Shown here: positions 33,799 through 64,000 of the stretch, in pieces | Layout: each line of letters begins with the position of its first letter | Numbering within the stretch: the stretch's first letter is position 1 | Assembly (NCBI GenBank): GCA_007922225.1 | Contig: ML679961.1 | Coordinates: 10,433,930-10,497,929, forward strand | Source of the DNA: Emydura subglobosa | Taxonomy: Eukaryota; Chordata; Testudines; Chelidae | Direction of reading: 5' to 3' | Length of the DNA: 64,000 bases | Position numbers and translations under genes: made by a program | The notes under the pieces: generated by a model | What the model saw: the letters and a program-made list of their open reading frames with translations, nothing else | Told to the model about the DNA's origin: nothing | Databases searched by the model: none

Positions 33799-35707
33799 TC
33801 ATAGAATCATAGAAGATTAGAAGGGATCTCAGGAGGTCATCTAGTCCAACCCCCTGCTCAAAGCAGCACCAACCCCAATTAAATCATCCCAGCCAGGGCT
33901 TTGTCAAGCCAGGCCTTAAACACCAGTAAGTATGCAGATTCCACCACCTCCCTAGGTAACCCATTCCAGTGATTCACCACTCACCTAGTGAAAAAGTTTT
34001 TTCTAATATCCAACCTAGACCTTCACCACTGCAACTTGAGACCATTGCTCCTAGTTCCGCTACCTACCACCACTGACAACAGCCTAGCTCCATCCTCCCT
34101 AGAACCCCTTTCAAATAGTTAAAGGCTGCTATCAAATCCTCCCTCATTCTTCTCATCTGCAAACTAAACAAGCCTAGTTCCCTCAGCTTCTCCTCCGAAG
34201 TCACAATCTCCAGCCCCCTAATCATTTTCGTTGCTCTCCGCTGGACTCTTTCCAATTTGCCCACATCCTTGCAGTAGTGGGGGGCCCAAAACTGGACACG
34301 GTACTCCAGATGTGACCTCACTAGTGCTAAATAGAGGGGAATAATCACTGCCCTTGATCTGCTGGCAATGCTCCTACTAATGCAGCCCAATATGCCATTA
34401 GCCTTCTTGGCAATAAGGACACACTGTTGACTCATATTCAACTTCTTGTTCACTGTAAACCCCAGGTCCTTTTCTGCAGAACTGCTGCCTAGCCAGTCGG
34501 TCCCCAGTCTGTAGCTGTGCATGGGATTCTTCTGTCCTAAGTGCAGGACTCTCCGCTTGTCCTTGATGAACTTTATCAGATTTCTTTTGGCCCAATCTTT
34601 TAATTTGTCTAAGTCACTCTGTATCCAATCCCTGCCCTCCAGCGTATCTACCACTCCCCCCATCTTAGTGTCACCTGCAAACTTGCTGAGGGTGCAATCC
34701 ACCCCATCCTCCAGATCATTAATGAGGATGTTGAACAAAATCGGCCCCAGCACCGACACTTGGAGCACTCCGCTTGTTACCAGCTGCCAACTAAACATCG
34801 AACCATTGATCACTACCCGTTGAGCCTGATGATCCAGTCAGCTTTCTATCCACCTTATAGTCCATTTGTCCAACCCATATTTCTTTAACTTGCTGGTAAG
34901 AATACTGTGGGAGGCCGTATCAAAAGCTTTGCTAAAGTCAAGGTATATCATATCCACATCTACAGAGCCAGTCATCTCGTCATAGAAGGCAATCGGGTTG
35001 GTCAGACATGACCTGCCCTTGGTGAATTCATGCTGACTGTTCTTGATCACCTTCCTCTCCTCCAAGTGCCTCAAAATGGATTCCTTGAGGACCTGCTCTA
35101 TGATTTTACGGGGTCTGAGGTGAGGCTGACTGGTCTGTAGTTCCTCAGATCCTGCTTCTTCCCTTTTTTGAAGATGGGCACTATATTTGCCTTTTCCCAA
35201 TAGACCGGGACCACCCCCCCCCCCTTGCCACAAGTTTTCAAAGATAATGGCCATAGCTCTGCAATCACATCAGCCAACTCCCTCGGATGCATTGCATCCA
35301 GCCCCATGGACTTGTGCATGTCCAATCTTTCTAAATAGTCCTGAACCTGTTCTTTCAGCACTGATGGCTGCTCACCTCCTTCCCATTCTGTGCTACCTAC
35401 TGCAGTAGTCTTGGAGCTGACCTTGTCTGTAAAGACAGAGGCAAAAAAAGCATTGAATACTTCAGCTTTTTCCACATCATCTGGCACTAGGTTGCCTCCT
35501 TCATTGTGTAAGGGGTCCACATTTTCCCTGACCTTCTTATTGCTAACATAACTGTAGAAACCCTTCTTGTTACTCTTCATGTCTCTTGCTAGCTGTCACT
35601 CTGTGATTTGGCCTTCCTGATTTCACTCCTGCATGCTCAAGCAGTATTTTTATACTCCTCCCTGGTCATCTGACCAAGCTTCCACTTCTTGTAAACTTCC
35701 TTTTTGG
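33799..35707 (-). mobile_element. CR1 LINE copy C, 5'-truncated
   Basis: The plus strand begins with the reversed CR1 terminus (atcatagaagattagaaggg, then 'gatctcaggaggtcatctag'). Homology to copy D holds through the 3' UTR, the reverse transcriptase and the linker, and ends near 35707. There the minus strand starts caaaaaggaagtttacaag, matching D at about 54570. The missing 5' part (ORF1 and endonuclease) is the usual CR1 truncation. Same subfamily as B and D. Confidence 0.95.
33880..35700 (-). pseudogene. CR1 ORF2 fragment (reverse transcriptase), copy C
   Basis: In minus-strand order the blocks are: the linker domain with [17 protein letters not shown] and [15 protein letters not shown] (35098-35580); [20 protein letters not shown]; then [18 protein letters not shown] (34838-35254); then a 249-codon frame (34064-34813) with the thumb and C-terminal region, including LVRSHLEYRVQFWAPHY and [16 protein letters not shown]. 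The catalytic block at 34670-34681 reads FAGD instead of FADD, so an essential aspartate is lost. Frame changes lie near 35100, 34830 and 34064. It is a dead copy. Confidence 0.9.
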
Positions 35708-36274: not shown

Positions 36275-36690
36275 GGTGCAAAATGAAGACTGTAATACCC
36301 CCTTTCTAACAAAGAGAAAGTTTAGGGGTGACTTGATGACAGTCTATAAGTACCTACAAGGGGAGCAAGTATTTCATAATGGGCTCTTCAATCTAGCAGA
36401 GACAGGTCTAACACAACCCAGTGGCTGGAAGTTGAAGCTAGACGAATTCAGACTGGAAATAAGGCACAACTTTTTATCAACAAGGGTAATTAACCATTGG
36501 AATAATTTACCAGCAGTAGTGGTAGTTTTTTCTGTCACTGGCAATTTTCAAATCAAGATTGGCTGTTTTTGATAAAATATCTGCTCTTAGGATTATTTGG
36601 GGGCAAGTTCTAGGGCCTCCTCTATGCAGGAGGTCAGATGGGATGATCACAATGGTCCCTTCTGGCCTTAGAATCTATGGATCCATGAAT
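36275..36690 (+). mobile_element. CR1 LINE 3' end, different subfamily
   Basis: The frame at 36276-36572 reads KFRGDLMTVYKYLQGE and TRVINHWNNLPAVVV, the CR1 C-terminal pattern 'RGDLI..YKYL' and 'VV.HWN.LP..VV'. It is followed by the 3' tail 'tgggatgatcacaatggtcc', 'cttctggccttagaatctat' and 'ggatccatgaa'. The tail differs from copies B, C and D, so it is another subfamily. Strongly 5'-truncated. Confidence 0.9.
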
Positions 36691-36784: not shown

Positions 36785-37117
36785 CCCTGTGCCAAAATCT
36801 CAGAGAGCCAGAACCAGCTCCTTTGAGCCCGGGGATCAGGTCCTAGTTTTGCTGCCCTCAGCGGAATCTAAGATGCTCACCAGGGACCCTATGAAGTCCT
36901 CCGGGCGGTTGGCCCCGTGAACTATGAGATCTGCCAACCCGACCGGAGAAAAAAGAAACAGGTGTATCACGTAAACCTGTTAAAACCCTGGCGGGAACGA
37001 GAGGGACCACTGATCAACCCGCACCCCCAAGACCCAGAGTTGGGCCCACTGATCCCTGAGCAGGAGGAGCCGGGAGAACCCCATCTCAGGGGCACCCTTA
37101 CCGGACCCCAATTATGA
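36785..37117 (+). pseudogene. Gypsy integrase C-terminal (GPY/F) region
   Basis: The frame containing GPYEVLRAVGPVNYEICQPD (from 36884) and KKKQVYHVNLLKPWRERE is the GPY/F module found at the C-terminus of gypsy and retroviral integrases, where it helps multimerise the enzyme. Upstream, in another frame, EPGDQVLVLLP-like sequence is worn. The frame stops at TGA 37115-37117. The next reading frame, the reverse transcriptase, is in the same phase, so the ancestral element most likely had a continuous integrase-reverse transcriptase polyprotein. The catalytic core of the integrase is missing. Confidence 0.8.
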
Positions 37118-38500
37118 CAGGCCAGGTACTTGATTGAGACCTTTGCCACCACCTTCACCACAACCCTCGGAAAGACCAGCCAGGTATACCACCACATCGA
37201 AACTTCTCCAGGTGAGGTCATGCAGACGGGCACACGCTCGCCTCCCTGCCACCTACAAGTGGCAGTAGAGGAGGAGGTCCAGGCCATGTTGCGCCTGGGA
37301 GTCATAGAGCCCTCGACTAGTGCGTGGCAGAGTCCGATAGTGCTAGTGCCCAAGCCTGACGGGTCCTGGCGCTTTTGTATCAACTTCCGGCGGGTCAATG
37401 AGATTTTGAAATTCAATGCCTACCCCATGCCTCGCATTGACGAGTTACTAGACCAACTAGGGGAGGCCCGGTATTTCTCCACTCTGGATCTTACAAAGGG
37501 GTACTGGCAGATCCCCCTGGAAGCTCGGTCCCGCAAAAAAACAGCCTTTGCGACACCCAGCGGCCTGTATCACTTCATTCGAATGCCTTTCAGACTACAC
37601 GGGGTCCCCGCTACCTTCCAGAGGCTGATGGATCAGCTCCTGGTACCCCACCTAGAATACGCCGCCACCTACTTGGATGATGTTGTCATCTATAGCCATG
37701 ACTGGGACGACCACCTCAACCAAGTGGCCGCCCTGCTGCAGGCCCTCCGAGATGCGGGCTTGACCACCAACCCCCGGAAGTACCGCATTGGGTGGCAAGA
37801 GACCACGTACCCAGGTTATACCCTGGGCCAGGGGACCCTGTGACCCCTGAATAGCAAGGTACAAGCCCTGCAAGAGTACCCTGACCGGCCACCAAGAAAC
37901 AGGTACGACAGTTCTTAAGGTTGGCCGGCTATTACCGGCGTTTCGTGCCAAATTTTGCCAACCTCACTGCCCCCTTCACGGACACCCTGTGGAAGGACCA
38001 ACCACTCCATGTTCAGAGGACTCCCAGAATGGGACAGGGCCTTCGTAGCGCTCAAGGAGGCCCTGTGCCACAAGCCAGTCCTCCACATCCCGGACTTTGC
38101 TTGCCCGTTCATGGTGCAGACTGACGCCTTGGCCATTGGACTAGGGGCCATGTTGACTCAAGTGTTTGGCGAAGAGGAGCACCCCATCCTCTACTTGAGC
38201 TGCAGGCTGTTTCCCCATGAGGAGTGATACGTGACAGTTGAAAAAGAGGCTCTAGCCAGGAAGTGGGCACTAGAAGCCCTAAGGTACTATCTGCTGGGGA
38301 GCCCCTTCACCATGGTCACAGACCACGTCCCCCTCTGCTGGCTCCAGCGGATGAAGGACACCAACGCCCGGGTAATGCGGTGGTACCATGCCCTGCAGCC
38401 ATTCGCATTCACCATTAAACACCGCGCGGGGGCGGGACCATGCTAATGCGGATGCGTTGTCACGGATGGACCCCAAGGAGCCGGCCAGCCCCGGAGACTG
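37118..38500 (+). pseudogene. Gypsy reverse transcriptase and RNase H
   Basis: The reverse transcriptase frame (37130-37843) contains YHHIETSPGE, IEPSTSAWQSPIVLVPKPDG, FCINFRRVNE, YFSTLDLTKGYWQIPLEA, GVPATFQRLMDQLL and the catalytic YLDD at 37670-37681. After TGA 37841-37843 the protein continues as LAGYYRRFVPNFANLTAPF in the next frame. It then shifts back to RNase H: VLHIPDFACPFMVQTDA, GLGAML, HPILYLSCRLFPHE, a stop at 38225-38227, then TVEKEALARKWALEALRYYL and TDHVPLCWLQRM. The last homologous residues are NADALSRMD near 38447-38470. No integrase follows. The missing or altered spots (three stops or shifts) show it is a pseudogene. Confidence 0.9.
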
Positions 38501-38512
38501 GGGGCTTGTCTT

Positions 38513-38521
38513 GGGGGGGGG
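38513..38521 (+). other. Polypurine tract of the gypsy element
   Basis: Nine G residues lie just after the RNase H region and directly before the LTR start. This is where plus-strand synthesis would be primed in an LTR retrotransposon. Confidence 0.65.
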
Positions 38522-39627
38522 TATAGGAAGTTGCAGTGGCCTTCCTCAGAGCCTGGGCCTGAGGAAGGCCCACGGCAACGAGAGCAGACAGTGAAAGGGC
38601 CGGCAGACCAGTCTGCCCGGCAACCAGGGAGCCGGACAGGGATAGGTTCACCCAACCAGCCTATCCGGCAACAGAGGGGCGGAGCTTCTGTCGGGGCAGG
38701 GAGTACAAAAGGCAGTCCCCGCAGCTCAGTGGGAGACAGGCGGCCGCCAGAGGCAGACGTGCCAGCCTGCTGGCTGCAGTGTAGACCTGACCCCAGCCAG
38801 GCCGCTGCCCCGAGTGAGCACCTCCCAGAGCAGAGGCGCCAGGAACGGCCCTGCCGACCAACCCCTAAGGACTGGATAGGTCCCCCCAGAACCTCATGAC
38901 TGGACTGGGGCCCCAAACCCCAAGGACTGCAATGGGCCTCTGGGCCCAAGTGACTGGACTAGAGGGCTGGGAGATACCCTCGGAGGCCGGCCCTGACCTG
39001 GAGGAGTTGCCCTCTGCTGAGGAACCCCAGGACACCTGAGACCTAGAGGAGCTGCCCTCCGCCGAGGAGCTCCCCGCCTTGCCGCTGGTGGATGAAGAGG
39101 GACTAGTGAGCCTGCCACGGGCCATGTACCCCAGCGACCCTGAGGACCCAGAAGAGACAGGTACCTGGGGATACAGGGAGGAAGTGGCCCAGGGACAGCC
39201 ATTGACAGTGGCTCTGACAGGGGCAAGACCCCATCAGCGTGTTGCGGTGGGAGCCCCGCCAACTCAGTGGCAACGTCCTTGCCACTGCTAGGGCCCTGGG
39301 CTGGGAAACAGTGGAGACGGGTGGGCCTGCGTCCCCCTCTCCCTTTCCCTATCCACCCTGGGAGAACGTGCTCTCCCCCTGCCGCTACTGAGTGGACCCA
39401 CTGCCCGCCTCGCCCTGCCTAAGGGCCAGGGTACTAGACTACTTGCTTGCCCGCCATGCCTGAGGGCAGGGCCAATAAACTACTCGCTTGCCCACACTGC
39501 CAAGGGCCGGGGCAATAGGGCAAGGCAGGAGAACAAGTAGTCTATCTCAGGGCCCGAGGAGGCCCGACTACTTGGCAGTCCGCCCTGCCTGGGGACCAGG
39601 ACCAAGACTAGTACAGAGGTGCTAACA
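38522..39627 (+). mobile_element. 3' LTR of the Gmr1-like element
   Basis: It begins tataggaagttgcagtgg right after the polypurine tract (a normal LTR would start TG, so one base has changed). A GC box (gaggggcgg, 38674-38682), a TATA-like tacaaaag (38704-38711) and a polyadenylation signal aataaa (39474-39479) appear in the right order. The right end is placed at gctaaca near 39627, because the LTR's first bases recur at 39639. The long GC-rich frames inside it (for example 38443-38949 minus) are not genes. Confidence 0.65.
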
Positions 39628-39638
39628 TTCCCCTTTTT

Positions 39639-39700
39639 GGAAGGTGCAGTGGCCTTCCTCAGAGCCTGGGCCCGAGGAAGGGCCACGGCGACCAAGCCGG
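39639..39700 (+). repeat. Partial second copy of the LTR start
   Basis: The sequence ggaaggtgcagtggccttcc, then 'tcagagcctgggcccgagga', repeats 38526-38590 with few differences at an offset of 1113 bp. It breaks off after 'agccggaca'. It may be the start of another LTR in tandem. Confidence 0.75.
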
Positions 39701-39707
39701 ACAAGAT

Positions 39708-39860
39708 GCCAGCTTACAGTGACCTTGAGCTTCTTTGTGCCTTATTTTCTCTATCTGTAAAATGGGGGATAATGATACATCCTTTGAAAAGTGCATTGAG
39801 CTCTATGGATGAAAAACACAACATCAGAGCTAGGTGTTGTTACCGGCACTACTGTAATAT
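39708..39860 (+). mobile_element. MIR-like SINE fragment
   Basis: Core words 'ttctctatctgtaaaatggg' and 'gggataatgatacatccttt' with a tail 'gctaggtgttgttaccggca'. The head is missing or lost at the junction with the LTR fragment. Confidence 0.65.
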
Positions 39861-41565: not shown

Positions 41566-42767
41566 TTAGGAAAACACTCCTAGTCAGGATAAGACCTAAG
41601 CACAGGATTAAATTTAAGTCAGTGGGAATTAATCACATGCTTAAAGCTAAACACACATTGCTTTCCTGAATCAAGTCCTTATGGAGTAACCTGCCCAAAG
41701 GGGTAATTTTTTTTCTGTCCCCTATAATTAGAGATTCAATAGATTCCAAGACCAGAGGGGACTACTGTGATCACCTAATCTGACCTCCTGTATAACACAG
41801 GACATAGAATTTCCCAAATATAATTCCGAGAGCAGATGTTTTAGGAAAACATCCAATCTTGATTTAAAAATTGCCATTGATGGAGAAAGCACCACTACTC
41901 TTGGTAAATTGTTCCCATGTTAATTACCCTCACTGTTTAATTACCCTCACTGTTAAAAAATTATTTCCAGTCTGAGTTTGTCTAGCTTCAGCTTCCAGCC
42001 ATTGGATTGTGTTAGATCTTTCTTTGCTAGACTGAAGAGGCCATTACTAAATATTTGTTCCCATTGAAGACACTTATAGACTGTGATCAAGTCACCCTTA
42101 ACCTTTTCTAAATATAGAAGCTAAATATAGACTCATAGACTTTAAGGTCAGAAGGGACCATCGTGATCATCTAGTCTGACCTCCTGCACAAGACAGGCCA
42201 CAGAACCTGACCCCCACACTCCTGTAATAGGCCCCTAACCTCTGGCTGAGTTACTGAAGTCCTCAAACTGTGGTTTAAAGACTTAAAGTTACAGAGAATC
42301 CACCATTTACACAAGCTTAAACGTGCAAGTGACCCCATGACCCATGCTTCAGAGGAAGGTGAAACACCCCCAGGTCTCTGCCAATCTGACCTGGGGGACA
42401 ATTCCTTCATGACTCCAAATATGGCGACCAGTTAGACCCTCTGCATGGTGGGCGAGACCCACCAGGCAGGTACCTGGGAAAAAATTCTCTGTAGAAACTC
42501 AGAGTTCTCCCCATCTCGTGTGCTATCTCCCACCATTGGGGATTTTTGCTACTGTCAGTCGCTGATGGGCCACGTGCCATTATAGGCAGTCTCATCCTAC
42601 CATCCCCTCCAGAAAATTATCAAGCTCAGTCTTGAAGCCAGCTAGGTTTTTGGCCTCCACTGCTCCCCTTGGAAGGCTGTTCCAGAACGTCACTCCGCTG
42701 ATGGTTAGAAACTTTCGCCTAATTTCAAGCCTAAACTTGTTGATGGTGAGTTTATAGCCAGTTGTTC

Positions 42768-62958: not shown

Positions 62959-63640
62959 ATGATAGATTTAGAATGGTTGATGAAATGGATGACTGAGAAC
63001 CAGCAGCAGCAGCAACAACAGCTCCTACAGCAAATGGCCGCCCAGCAGCAACTGGTACAGGGCCAAGGGGCCTAGCAAAAAGAACAGCAGCCAAAGGCTA
63101 GTTCACCAAGTTGTGGCATTGATGAAGCCCGGAGTTCCCTCAGAGCATCTCCATCAGGGGGCCCTGGCCAAACCCAGGGCCCCTGCCTGTATTCATGAAG
63201 CTCACAAAGATGGACACTGAGGATGACCCCAAGGATTTCCTGACAACATTTGCATGGGTTGAGACGGCTGCCTGATGGCTCTCTGACCAGTGGGCCATCC
63301 TGCTTGCCCTCTACCTGACGGGCCAGTGCAGGCTGCATATCAGGGACTGGATGCGGAGTCTGCCCAAGACTACCCCCAGGTCAAAGCGGCTATCTTGGAC
63401 TACCTCAACATCAGAGGAGACCTTCCATCAGAGGCTCTGGGGAGAGAGGTACCCTCCGGGGGCCAGACCCTATGTCATTGCCCAGAAACTATGAAACATG
63501 TGTTGGAGGTGGCTAAAGCCAGAAACATGAACCGGAGTAAACATGGCTGAACTCCTCCTGGTGGAACAGTTCACCCAAATCCTTCCAAAAGGGGGAAGGG
63601 ACTGGATGCTCAGTTACTGACACCGTGTGATTGATGGAGA
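62959..63640 (+). pseudogene. Gypsy gag with SCAN-like C-terminal segment
   Basis: The start is ATG 62959, giving MIDLEWLMKWMTENQQQQQQ and a glutamine-rich stretch (QQMAAQQQLVQGQ), ended early by TAG at 63073-63075. Capsid-like sequence continues in other frames. The frame at 63290-63550 has GPVQAAYQGLDAESAQDYPQ and VKAAILDYLNI. The frame at 63546-63611 has LLVEQFTQILPKGGRDW, followed by LMENYLAAKTAL-type sequence. The LLVLEQFL.ILP...W pattern is the core of the SCAN domain, which in vertebrate zinc-finger proteins mediates dimerisation and is derived from Gmr1-like gag. Several frameshifts make it a pseudogene. Confidence 0.75.
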
Positions 63641-63744
63641 ACTACCTGGCAGCCAAGACAGCTCTAACTCCCACACCCGAGCCATTGCCTGAGGCCAGAG
63701 GGATCCTTCAACATAAGGGAGAAGCCATTCAGGGAAGACAGAAA

Positions 63745-64000
63745 ATAGATAGGCTTTATTTAATGAAGGGGTATTGGAAAATCCCACTACCACCTTCACA
63801 CTCCATTTGGCCTCTACCAGTTGCAAACTGTGTCTTTTGGACTCCACGGGGACCTGCGACATTGCAGCACCTTATGGACCAGGTTTTTCAGTCCCATAAC
63901 TCATACGCCCCAGCCTATTTAAATGATGTAGCCATCTATAGCCGAACCTGAAAGGAATGCCTGGCACAAGTTGCAGCCATGATCCTGTCTCTACGGCAGA
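63745..64000 (+). pseudogene. Gypsy reverse transcriptase fragment, runs off the window
   Basis: The frame up to 63951 reads DRLYLMKGYWKIPLPP (KGYWK at 63766-63780), GPATLQHLMDQVF, then YAPAYLNDVAIYSRT. This matches LDL.KGYWQIPL, GAPATFQRLMD and AYLDDVVIYS of gypsy reverse transcriptase. The catalytic motif is YLND (63916-63927), so one metal-binding aspartate is replaced. A stop follows IYSRT at 63949-63951; CLAQVAAMILSLR continues after it. The region between KGYWK and GPATL is disturbed. Confidence 0.85.

What the first reader, a model, noticed from the sequence alone, without database searches (positions are those of the whole stretch)
36785..39627. Gypsy element with integrase upstream of reverse transcriptase (Gmr1-type order)
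Seen: a GPY/F integrase end (GPYEV from 36884) lies upstream of, and in the same frame as, the reverse transcriptase (YLDD 37670-37681). RNase H then runs straight into a G9 polypurine tract and an LTR, with no integrase after it. Known: most Ty3/gypsy elements have reverse transcriptase before integrase; Gmr1-like elements have the reverse order, like Ty1/copia. Inferred: this is a reptilian member of that lineage. A chance tail-to-head arrangement of two elements is the alternative, but the shared frame and close spacing (about 30 codons) argue against it.
Basis: partly seen in the sequence, partly recalled or inferred. Interest (0 to 1): 0.75.

Follow-up and report, generated by a model that had tools for sequence, protein, structure and literature searches.

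The report
Decayed Gmr1-type gypsy retrotransposon, turtle genome
This is the broken rear half of a mobile DNA element of a known kind (a Gmr1-like gypsy retrotransposon, whose integrase is encoded before its reverse transcriptase); complete relatives in the same genome, probably a turtle's, show that the unusual gene order is real but not new.

Summary
One painted-turtle protein (P0227) aligns to it collinearly over 520 residues, which argues strongly against two elements abutting by chance. Of 19 other copies read (of 150 scored matches), 18 have integrase upstream of RT and none has it downstream within 1.5 kb. Of 7 copies read further out, 4 run LTR-gag-PR-IN-RT-RH-LTR; 4 of 5 tested have 4-5 bp target-site duplications. 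Of 218 listed database relatives with both domains, 217 have integrase first. Five of the 7 copies have a SCAN-like gag, a reported Gmr1 trait. The window copy is a fossil: no 5' half, several stops and frame changes. The Gmr1 order is long published and turtle proteins with it are already deposited, so this is a new member of a known kind, of low interest. Placement against named gypsy clades is only partly tested.

The parts
36798..37114 (+). C-terminal end of integrase (SH3-like / GPY module), 5'-truncated, with a frame change near 36881; stop TGA at 37115-37117
   Evidence: PF22938 3.5e-16 and PF24626 3.5e-7 for 36872-37114; tblastn of P0227 residues 519-572 at 36798-36953 and 549-1065 at 36881-38431
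37118..37840 (+). reverse transcriptase, one open stretch of 241 codons, YLDD at 37670-37681, then TGA at 37841-37843
   Evidence: RVT_1 1.6e-28; 1530 database relatives at E<=1e-3, best 120 listed; Ty3 RT 4ol8 7.8e-45
37844..38446 (+). connection region and RNase H, broken by a stop (38225-38227) and frame changes
   Evidence: PF17919 2.5e-15 at 37919-38227, PF17917 1.5e-15 at 38231-38446
38513..38521 (+). G9 polypurine tract (likely plus-strand primer)
   Evidence: sequence; in copies L007, L009, L012 and L017 a similar G run lies two bases before the LTR start
38522..39718 (+). 3' LTR, 1197 bp, decayed ends (TATAGGA...TTACA; ends read in other copies TGTAGG...CCTACA)
   Evidence: boundaries by comparison with other copies; LTR matches in the genome; LTR match behind RNase H in 19 of 19 other copies
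38526..38580 (+). about 50-nt segment near the LTR start, repeated near the LTR end; can fold back on itself
   Evidence: direct repeat D2; DNA fold z -5.5 for 38526-38590; in other copies
39639..39693 (+). second copy of the LTR-end segment
63174..64000 (+). separate remnant of the same kind of element: SCAN-like gag pieces followed at once by RT pieces; no PR or IN match between; runs off the window's end
   Evidence: tblastn of P0149 63174-63593 2.3e-9, of P0227 63682-63999 3.8e-16; PF02023 SCAN 8.8e-4 for 63531-63617, below the curated cut-off; four other pieces of this stretch gave no Pfam match

Best explanation
The locus is the 5'-truncated, inactivated 3' half of an LTR retrotransposon of the Gmr1-like group of Ty3/gypsy elements, with pol order PR-IN-RT-RH. 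Complete relatives presumably move as other LTR retrotransposons do. An LTR-to-LTR transcript is packaged in a SCAN-like Gag shell, the pol polyprotein is cut into IN, RT and RNase H, reverse transcription starts at a primer site just behind the 5' LTR (TGGTGGAGAATGC, two bases behind it in 3 of 4 copies read; tRNA not identified) and at the G-rich tract before the 3' LTR, and integrase inserts the copy with a 4-5 bp duplication. Shown here: domain order, LTR pairs, target-site duplications, G-rich tract, decay of this copy. Inferred: all biochemical steps and the polyprotein cuts. This copy is too broken to make the proteins.
For: Domains in order IN-RT-RH then LTR. Collinear match of 520 residues at 58.8% to one Chrysemys picta protein. 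Of 218 listed database proteins with RT and an IN piece, 217 have IN upstream. Own genome: IN upstream in 18 of 19 other copies, downstream in 0 of 19 within 1.5 kb; LTR match behind RH in 19 of 19. LTR-gag-PR-IN-RT-RH-LTR in 4 of 7 copies read further out. First ~820 bases of the LTR pairs 92.8-98.9% identical in 5 of 6 copies compared. TSDs in 4 of 5. SCAN-like gag piece in 5 of 7; PMC4131045 reports SCAN in over half of Gmr elements and in no other type in frogs (passages). Tree.
Against: Two of the 218 database proteins have an IN piece after RNase H (P0178, P0281). Both look like joins of neighbouring elements: P0178 also has the IN C-terminus in front and its RNase H match stops at position 40 of 100; P0281 reads RT-RH-SCAN-IN-RT. 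L019 shows nothing upstream of RT, L008 no gag, L007 only short LTR pieces; no TSD was found for L014, and that of L012 is only 4 bases. The sixth LTR pair (L007) gave only 89 bases, and the repeat-rich rest of the LTR aligned less well in places (78.8% in L009 and L012). Four of 21 turtle RT rows fall outside the main group, and with L004 included the three standard-order rows did not form one group (long branches; AU p 0.33). The PR match of P0227 is below Pfam's cut-off and P0229 lacks most of the integrase core. The published Gmr1 itself was not in hand.
Confidence: 0.95

Rival explanations
1. Two standard-order gypsy elements lie tail to head: the integrase end of one happens to abut the RT of another.
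For: The integrase piece is truncated in front and a stop separates it from RT. Joins of neighbouring elements seem to occur in database proteins (P0178, P0281).
Against: Single database proteins cover IN-RT-RH collinearly with the same 262-residue spacing. 18 of 19 other genomic copies have the same order. Four copies with LTR pairs contain it as one unit, three of them with TSDs.
Confidence: 0.01
2. An integrase-first gypsy element that arose independently of Gmr1 (convergent reordering in reptiles).
For: No published Gmr1 reference was in the tree, and only three standard-order elements were available.
Against: A 43-row group (97/91) holds the window's RT with fish (including Gadus morhua), frog, newt, caecilian, coelacanth, lizard, crocodile and 17 of 21 turtle rows; where integrase can be read in them it lies upstream of RT (P0178 has a piece on both sides). 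Elements in L001 and L002 share the order and a SCAN-like gag (L002's SCAN match is below the curated cut-off).
Confidence: 0.04
3. A domesticated host gene made from the element.
For: RT is open for 241 codons.
Against: Stops and frame changes before, after and within RNase H; no integrase core, PR or gag found with it. No expression, selection or cross-species test was done.
Confidence: 0.01

Closest known systems
Gmr1-like clade of Ty3/gypsy (Butler, Goodwin and Poulter 2001; Goodwin and Poulter 2002; seen only as entries in the reference list of PMC2577118)
   Same: Integrase upstream of RT (stated for Gmr1 in PMC8220671 and PMC2774666); SCAN-like gag in full copies (reported for frog Gmr elements in PMC4131045 and for Gmr1-like gag in PMC4592553)
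   Different: No structural difference noticed, but no published Gmr1 sequence was compared; a turtle branch with its own LTR; this copy is truncated and broken
Chrysemys picta, Mauremys mutica and Pelodiscus sinensis proteins P0227, P0229, P0228 (deposited as uncharacterized proteins)
   Same: PR-IN-RT-RH order and spacing; 65-67% identity in RT
   Different: Long open proteins; the window copy is not. P0229 lacks most of the integrase core
Ty3 (yeast), the moth-associated element in L003 and the chromodomain element in L004
   Same: Gypsy-type RT and RNase H
   Different: Integrase after RNase H in L003 and L004; for Ty3 the order is recalled
Ty1/copia elements
   Same: Integrase before RT (stated in PMC8220671)
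   Different: RT, RNase H and IN here match gypsy-type families

Membership tests
Gmr1-like Ty3/gypsy | Integrase upstream of reverse transcriptase within one pol | tested here: met
   Window; 18 of 19 other genomic copies; 217 of 218 listed database proteins
Gmr1-like Ty3/gypsy | RT groups with Gmr1 and apart from standard-order gypsy clades | tested here: inconclusive
   In a 43-row group with an integrase-first Gadus morhua protein (97/91); L003 and Ty3 outside (99/90 with L004 left out). With L004 the standard rows did not group (AU p 0.33). Named Mag, CsRn1 and chromovirus references and published Gmr1 were not available
Gmr1-like Ty3/gypsy | Gypsy-type RT/RNase H and integrase with GPY/F module | tested here: met
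   PF00078, PF17917/PF17919, PF22938; GPY at 36884
Gmr1-like Ty3/gypsy | Gag capsid related to the SCAN domain | tested here: met
   Not found in the truncated window copy; SCAN-like gag piece by tblastn in 5 of 7 genomic copies; also in the second remnant at 63174-63593 (Pfam match below cut-off)
Gmr1-like Ty3/gypsy | Complete element bounded by LTRs with target-site duplication | tested here: met
   Not in the window copy (no 5' LTR); 4 of 7 other copies complete in order, TSD in 4 of 5 tested
Ty1/copia | Copia-type RT and integrase | tested here: not met
   Pfam and PDB matches are gypsy-type

The most novel reading that the evidence does not exclude
A large, recently active and undescribed turtle branch of Gmr1-like elements, whose LTRs carry the same roughly 50-nt foldback-prone segment near both ends, kept because it works in cis (for example in strand transfer, integration or transcription).
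Probability: 0.2. Interest if true: 0.35.

Novelty: new member of a known kind. Interest (0 to 1): 0.15.

Why it matters
Mainly as a clean confirmation that the integrase-first order runs through the turtle elements read here and that complete copies exist. Gmr1-like gag is the reported source of the SCAN domain of vertebrate zinc-finger genes (PMC4592553, PMC3406341; passages), so reptilian copies with a SCAN-like gag are useful for that comparison. It does not change the picture of gypsy evolution.

Tried and rejected
Led nowhere: three scans of viral contigs gave no relative; tblastn in phages gave none. The plasmid collection (3 records) and GTDB contigs (2 loci) gave only stray eukaryotic-looking elements, used as outgroups or far relatives. 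A contrast with standard-order elements of the same genome (query L003 RNase H-integrase, and a Ty3 RT query) did not complete. The repeat finder on three LTR loci gave nothing. The idea that the duplicated LTR-end segment is a conserved structure got no support from base changes: 0 of 12 predicted pairs with changes on both sides in 14 sequences.

Rejected: two abutting elements; copia membership; domesticated gene. Dropped rows: of 340 database proteins 50 were picked by hand for the tree, mostly those with an organism name; P0001 was then dropped as too short. L005 was left out of the tree because its RT lies in broken frames.

Not in print? Gmr1+turtle+retrotransposon gave 0 papers, Gmr1+Anolis 3 (one of them matches only a journal code), Gmr1+Chrysemys 1 (listing only, on fish sex chromosomes), Gmr1+reptile 30, of which 20 were listed and mostly not opened. 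I saw no paper on turtle Gmr1 in these listings; the held library lacks most subscription journals. Reptilian Gmr1-like elements are implied for lizards (PMC4592553, passage). An id recalled for the SCAN-origin paper was not held.

Full report
What is there. Between 36798 and 38521 the plus strand encodes in order an integrase C-terminus, reverse transcriptase and RNase H, followed by a G9 tract and an LTR. Pfam gives PF22938 3.5e-16 for 36872-37114, RVT_1 1.6e-28 for 37118-37840, and RNase H families 2.5e-15 and 1.5e-15 for 37919-38227 and 38231-38446. The copy is decayed: TGA at 37115-37117, 37841-37843 and 38225-38227, frame changes near 36881 and around RNase H, and no match in the window to the integrase core or protease of P0227 and P0229; gag-like matches lie only in the separate remnant at 63.2 kb.

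One element, not two. Painted-turtle protein P0227 (1158 aa; PR, H2C2, rve, IN C-terminus, RT, RNase H in that order, its PR match below Pfam's cut-off) matches 36881-38431 in one collinear stretch of 520 residues at 58.8%; Mauremys P0229 does so over 493 residues at 57.2%. The GPY-to-YLDD distance is 262 residues in the window and in P0227, P0228, P0229, P0177 and P0178; the median is 263 in the 176 of 213 proteins where both motifs could be read.

Database relatives. Three searches listed the best 120 each of 1530, 2725 and 2334 matches, 340 different proteins in all. 218 of the 340 have RT and an integrase piece; in 217 integrase is upstream of RT, and 27 read PR-H2C2-RVE-INc-RT-RH. Two have an integrase piece after RNase H: P0178 (which also has one in front) and P0281, both readable as joins of neighbouring elements. 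The other 122 show no integrase piece. The queries were themselves integrase-first or RT alone, so distant standard-order elements would not be listed; the third query, P0178, has integrase pieces after RNase H and could have drawn in close ones, but apart from itself and P0281 none was listed.

The same genome. The window lies in an unnamed assembly of 1.93 Gb; the RT query gave 150 scored matches from 10256 candidates. 20 loci were read with 1.5 kb on each side, one of them the window itself. Of the other 19, 18 have the integrase C-terminus upstream, 15 also H2C2 and rve, none has integrase downstream, and 19 of 19 have an LTR match behind RNase H. For 7 copies further pieces were fetched: 4 (L009, L012, L014, L017) read LTR-gag-PR-IN-RT-RH-LTR; L008 lacks a gag match, L007 shows only short LTR pieces, L019 has nothing upstream of RT. 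The first ~820 bases of the LTR pairs are 92.8-98.9% identical in 5 of 6 compared; the sixth, L007, gave an 89-base match; the repeat-rich remainder aligned at 78.8% in L009 and L012 and 91-98% in L014 and L017. Exact target-site duplications (CAGTT, GCAG, AGGGG, GCAGG) were found in 4 of 5 copies tested, not in L014.

LTR. Comparison with the other copies fixes the window LTR at 38522-39718; in the copies with target-site duplications it starts TGTAGG and ends CCTACA. A segment of about 50 nt near the start (38526-38580) recurs near the end (39639-39693) in the window and, by my count of the rows, at 36 of the 40 scored LTR places. It folds well as DNA in the window copy (z -5.5), but across 14 segments no predicted pair changes on both sides, so a structural role is not shown.

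Tree. 55 RT rows: the window, 49 database proteins, L001-L004 and Ty3. The window RT lies in an 11-row clade whose other 10 rows are turtle (100/99), within a 43-row group (97/91) with lizard, crocodile, fish (including Gadus morhua P0261), amphibian and coelacanth rows and 17 of 21 turtle rows. The other four turtle rows (P0090, P0103, P0109, P0116) sit in a separate 6-row set with L001 and L004, although P0090, P0103 and P0109 also have integrase first. L003 and L004 have the standard order; for Ty3 it is recalled. L003 and Ty3 fall outside (99/90 with L004 left out). With L004 in, it joins L001 on long branches and the three standard rows are not together; the AU test does not reject their being together (p 0.33). 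Standard-order animal clades with names are missing, so the phylogenetic half of membership is only partly tested.

Literature. PMC8220671 (passages and Discussion) and PMC2774666 (passage) state the integrase-first order of Gmr1. PMC4131045 (passages) reports about 200 Gmr1-like copies in a frog and SCAN in over half of Gmr elements only. PMC4592553 and PMC3406341 (passages) link SCAN to Gmr1-like gag and mention lizards. Titles of the founding papers were seen in a reference list.

Verdict. The element is an ordinary, dead member of a known lineage; novelty and interest are low.

Noticed in passing
63174-64000: A second remnant of the same kind of element: SCAN-like gag pieces run directly into RT pieces, with no PR or IN match between.
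   Followed up: partly
38526-38580 and 39639-39693: The LTR carries the same ~50-nt segment near both ends, foldback-prone, also in other copies of the genome; no covariation.
   Followed up: partly
36317-36686 and 41961-42214: A repeat in inverted copies flanks the element; from recall it looks like the 3' end of a CR1 LINE, and the element's truncation lies close to it.
   Followed up: no
34064-35595, minus strand: Decayed LINE-like reverse transcriptase pieces (ORFs; one weak RVT_1 match, 0.014, below cut-off).
   Followed up: no
L003:1-5332 (NZ_CP087956.1): A circular 'Wolbachia plasmid' record from a moth sample holds PR, RT, RNase H, then integrase: a standard-order gypsy element by content.
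   Followed up: partly
L004, L005 (NZ_CP065945.1, NZ_CP065944.1): Records named Bacillus licheniformis plasmids hold gypsy-type pol frames with a second RNase H-like domain (RVT_3) before integrase; L004 also a chromodomain. They look eukaryotic.
   Followed up: partly
L001:1-5157 and L002:845-5275: Contigs of a Heimdallarchaeota MAG and a Thiodubiliella MAG carry integrase-first gypsy elements with SCAN-like gag in one frame, probably eukaryotic contamination.
   Followed up: partly
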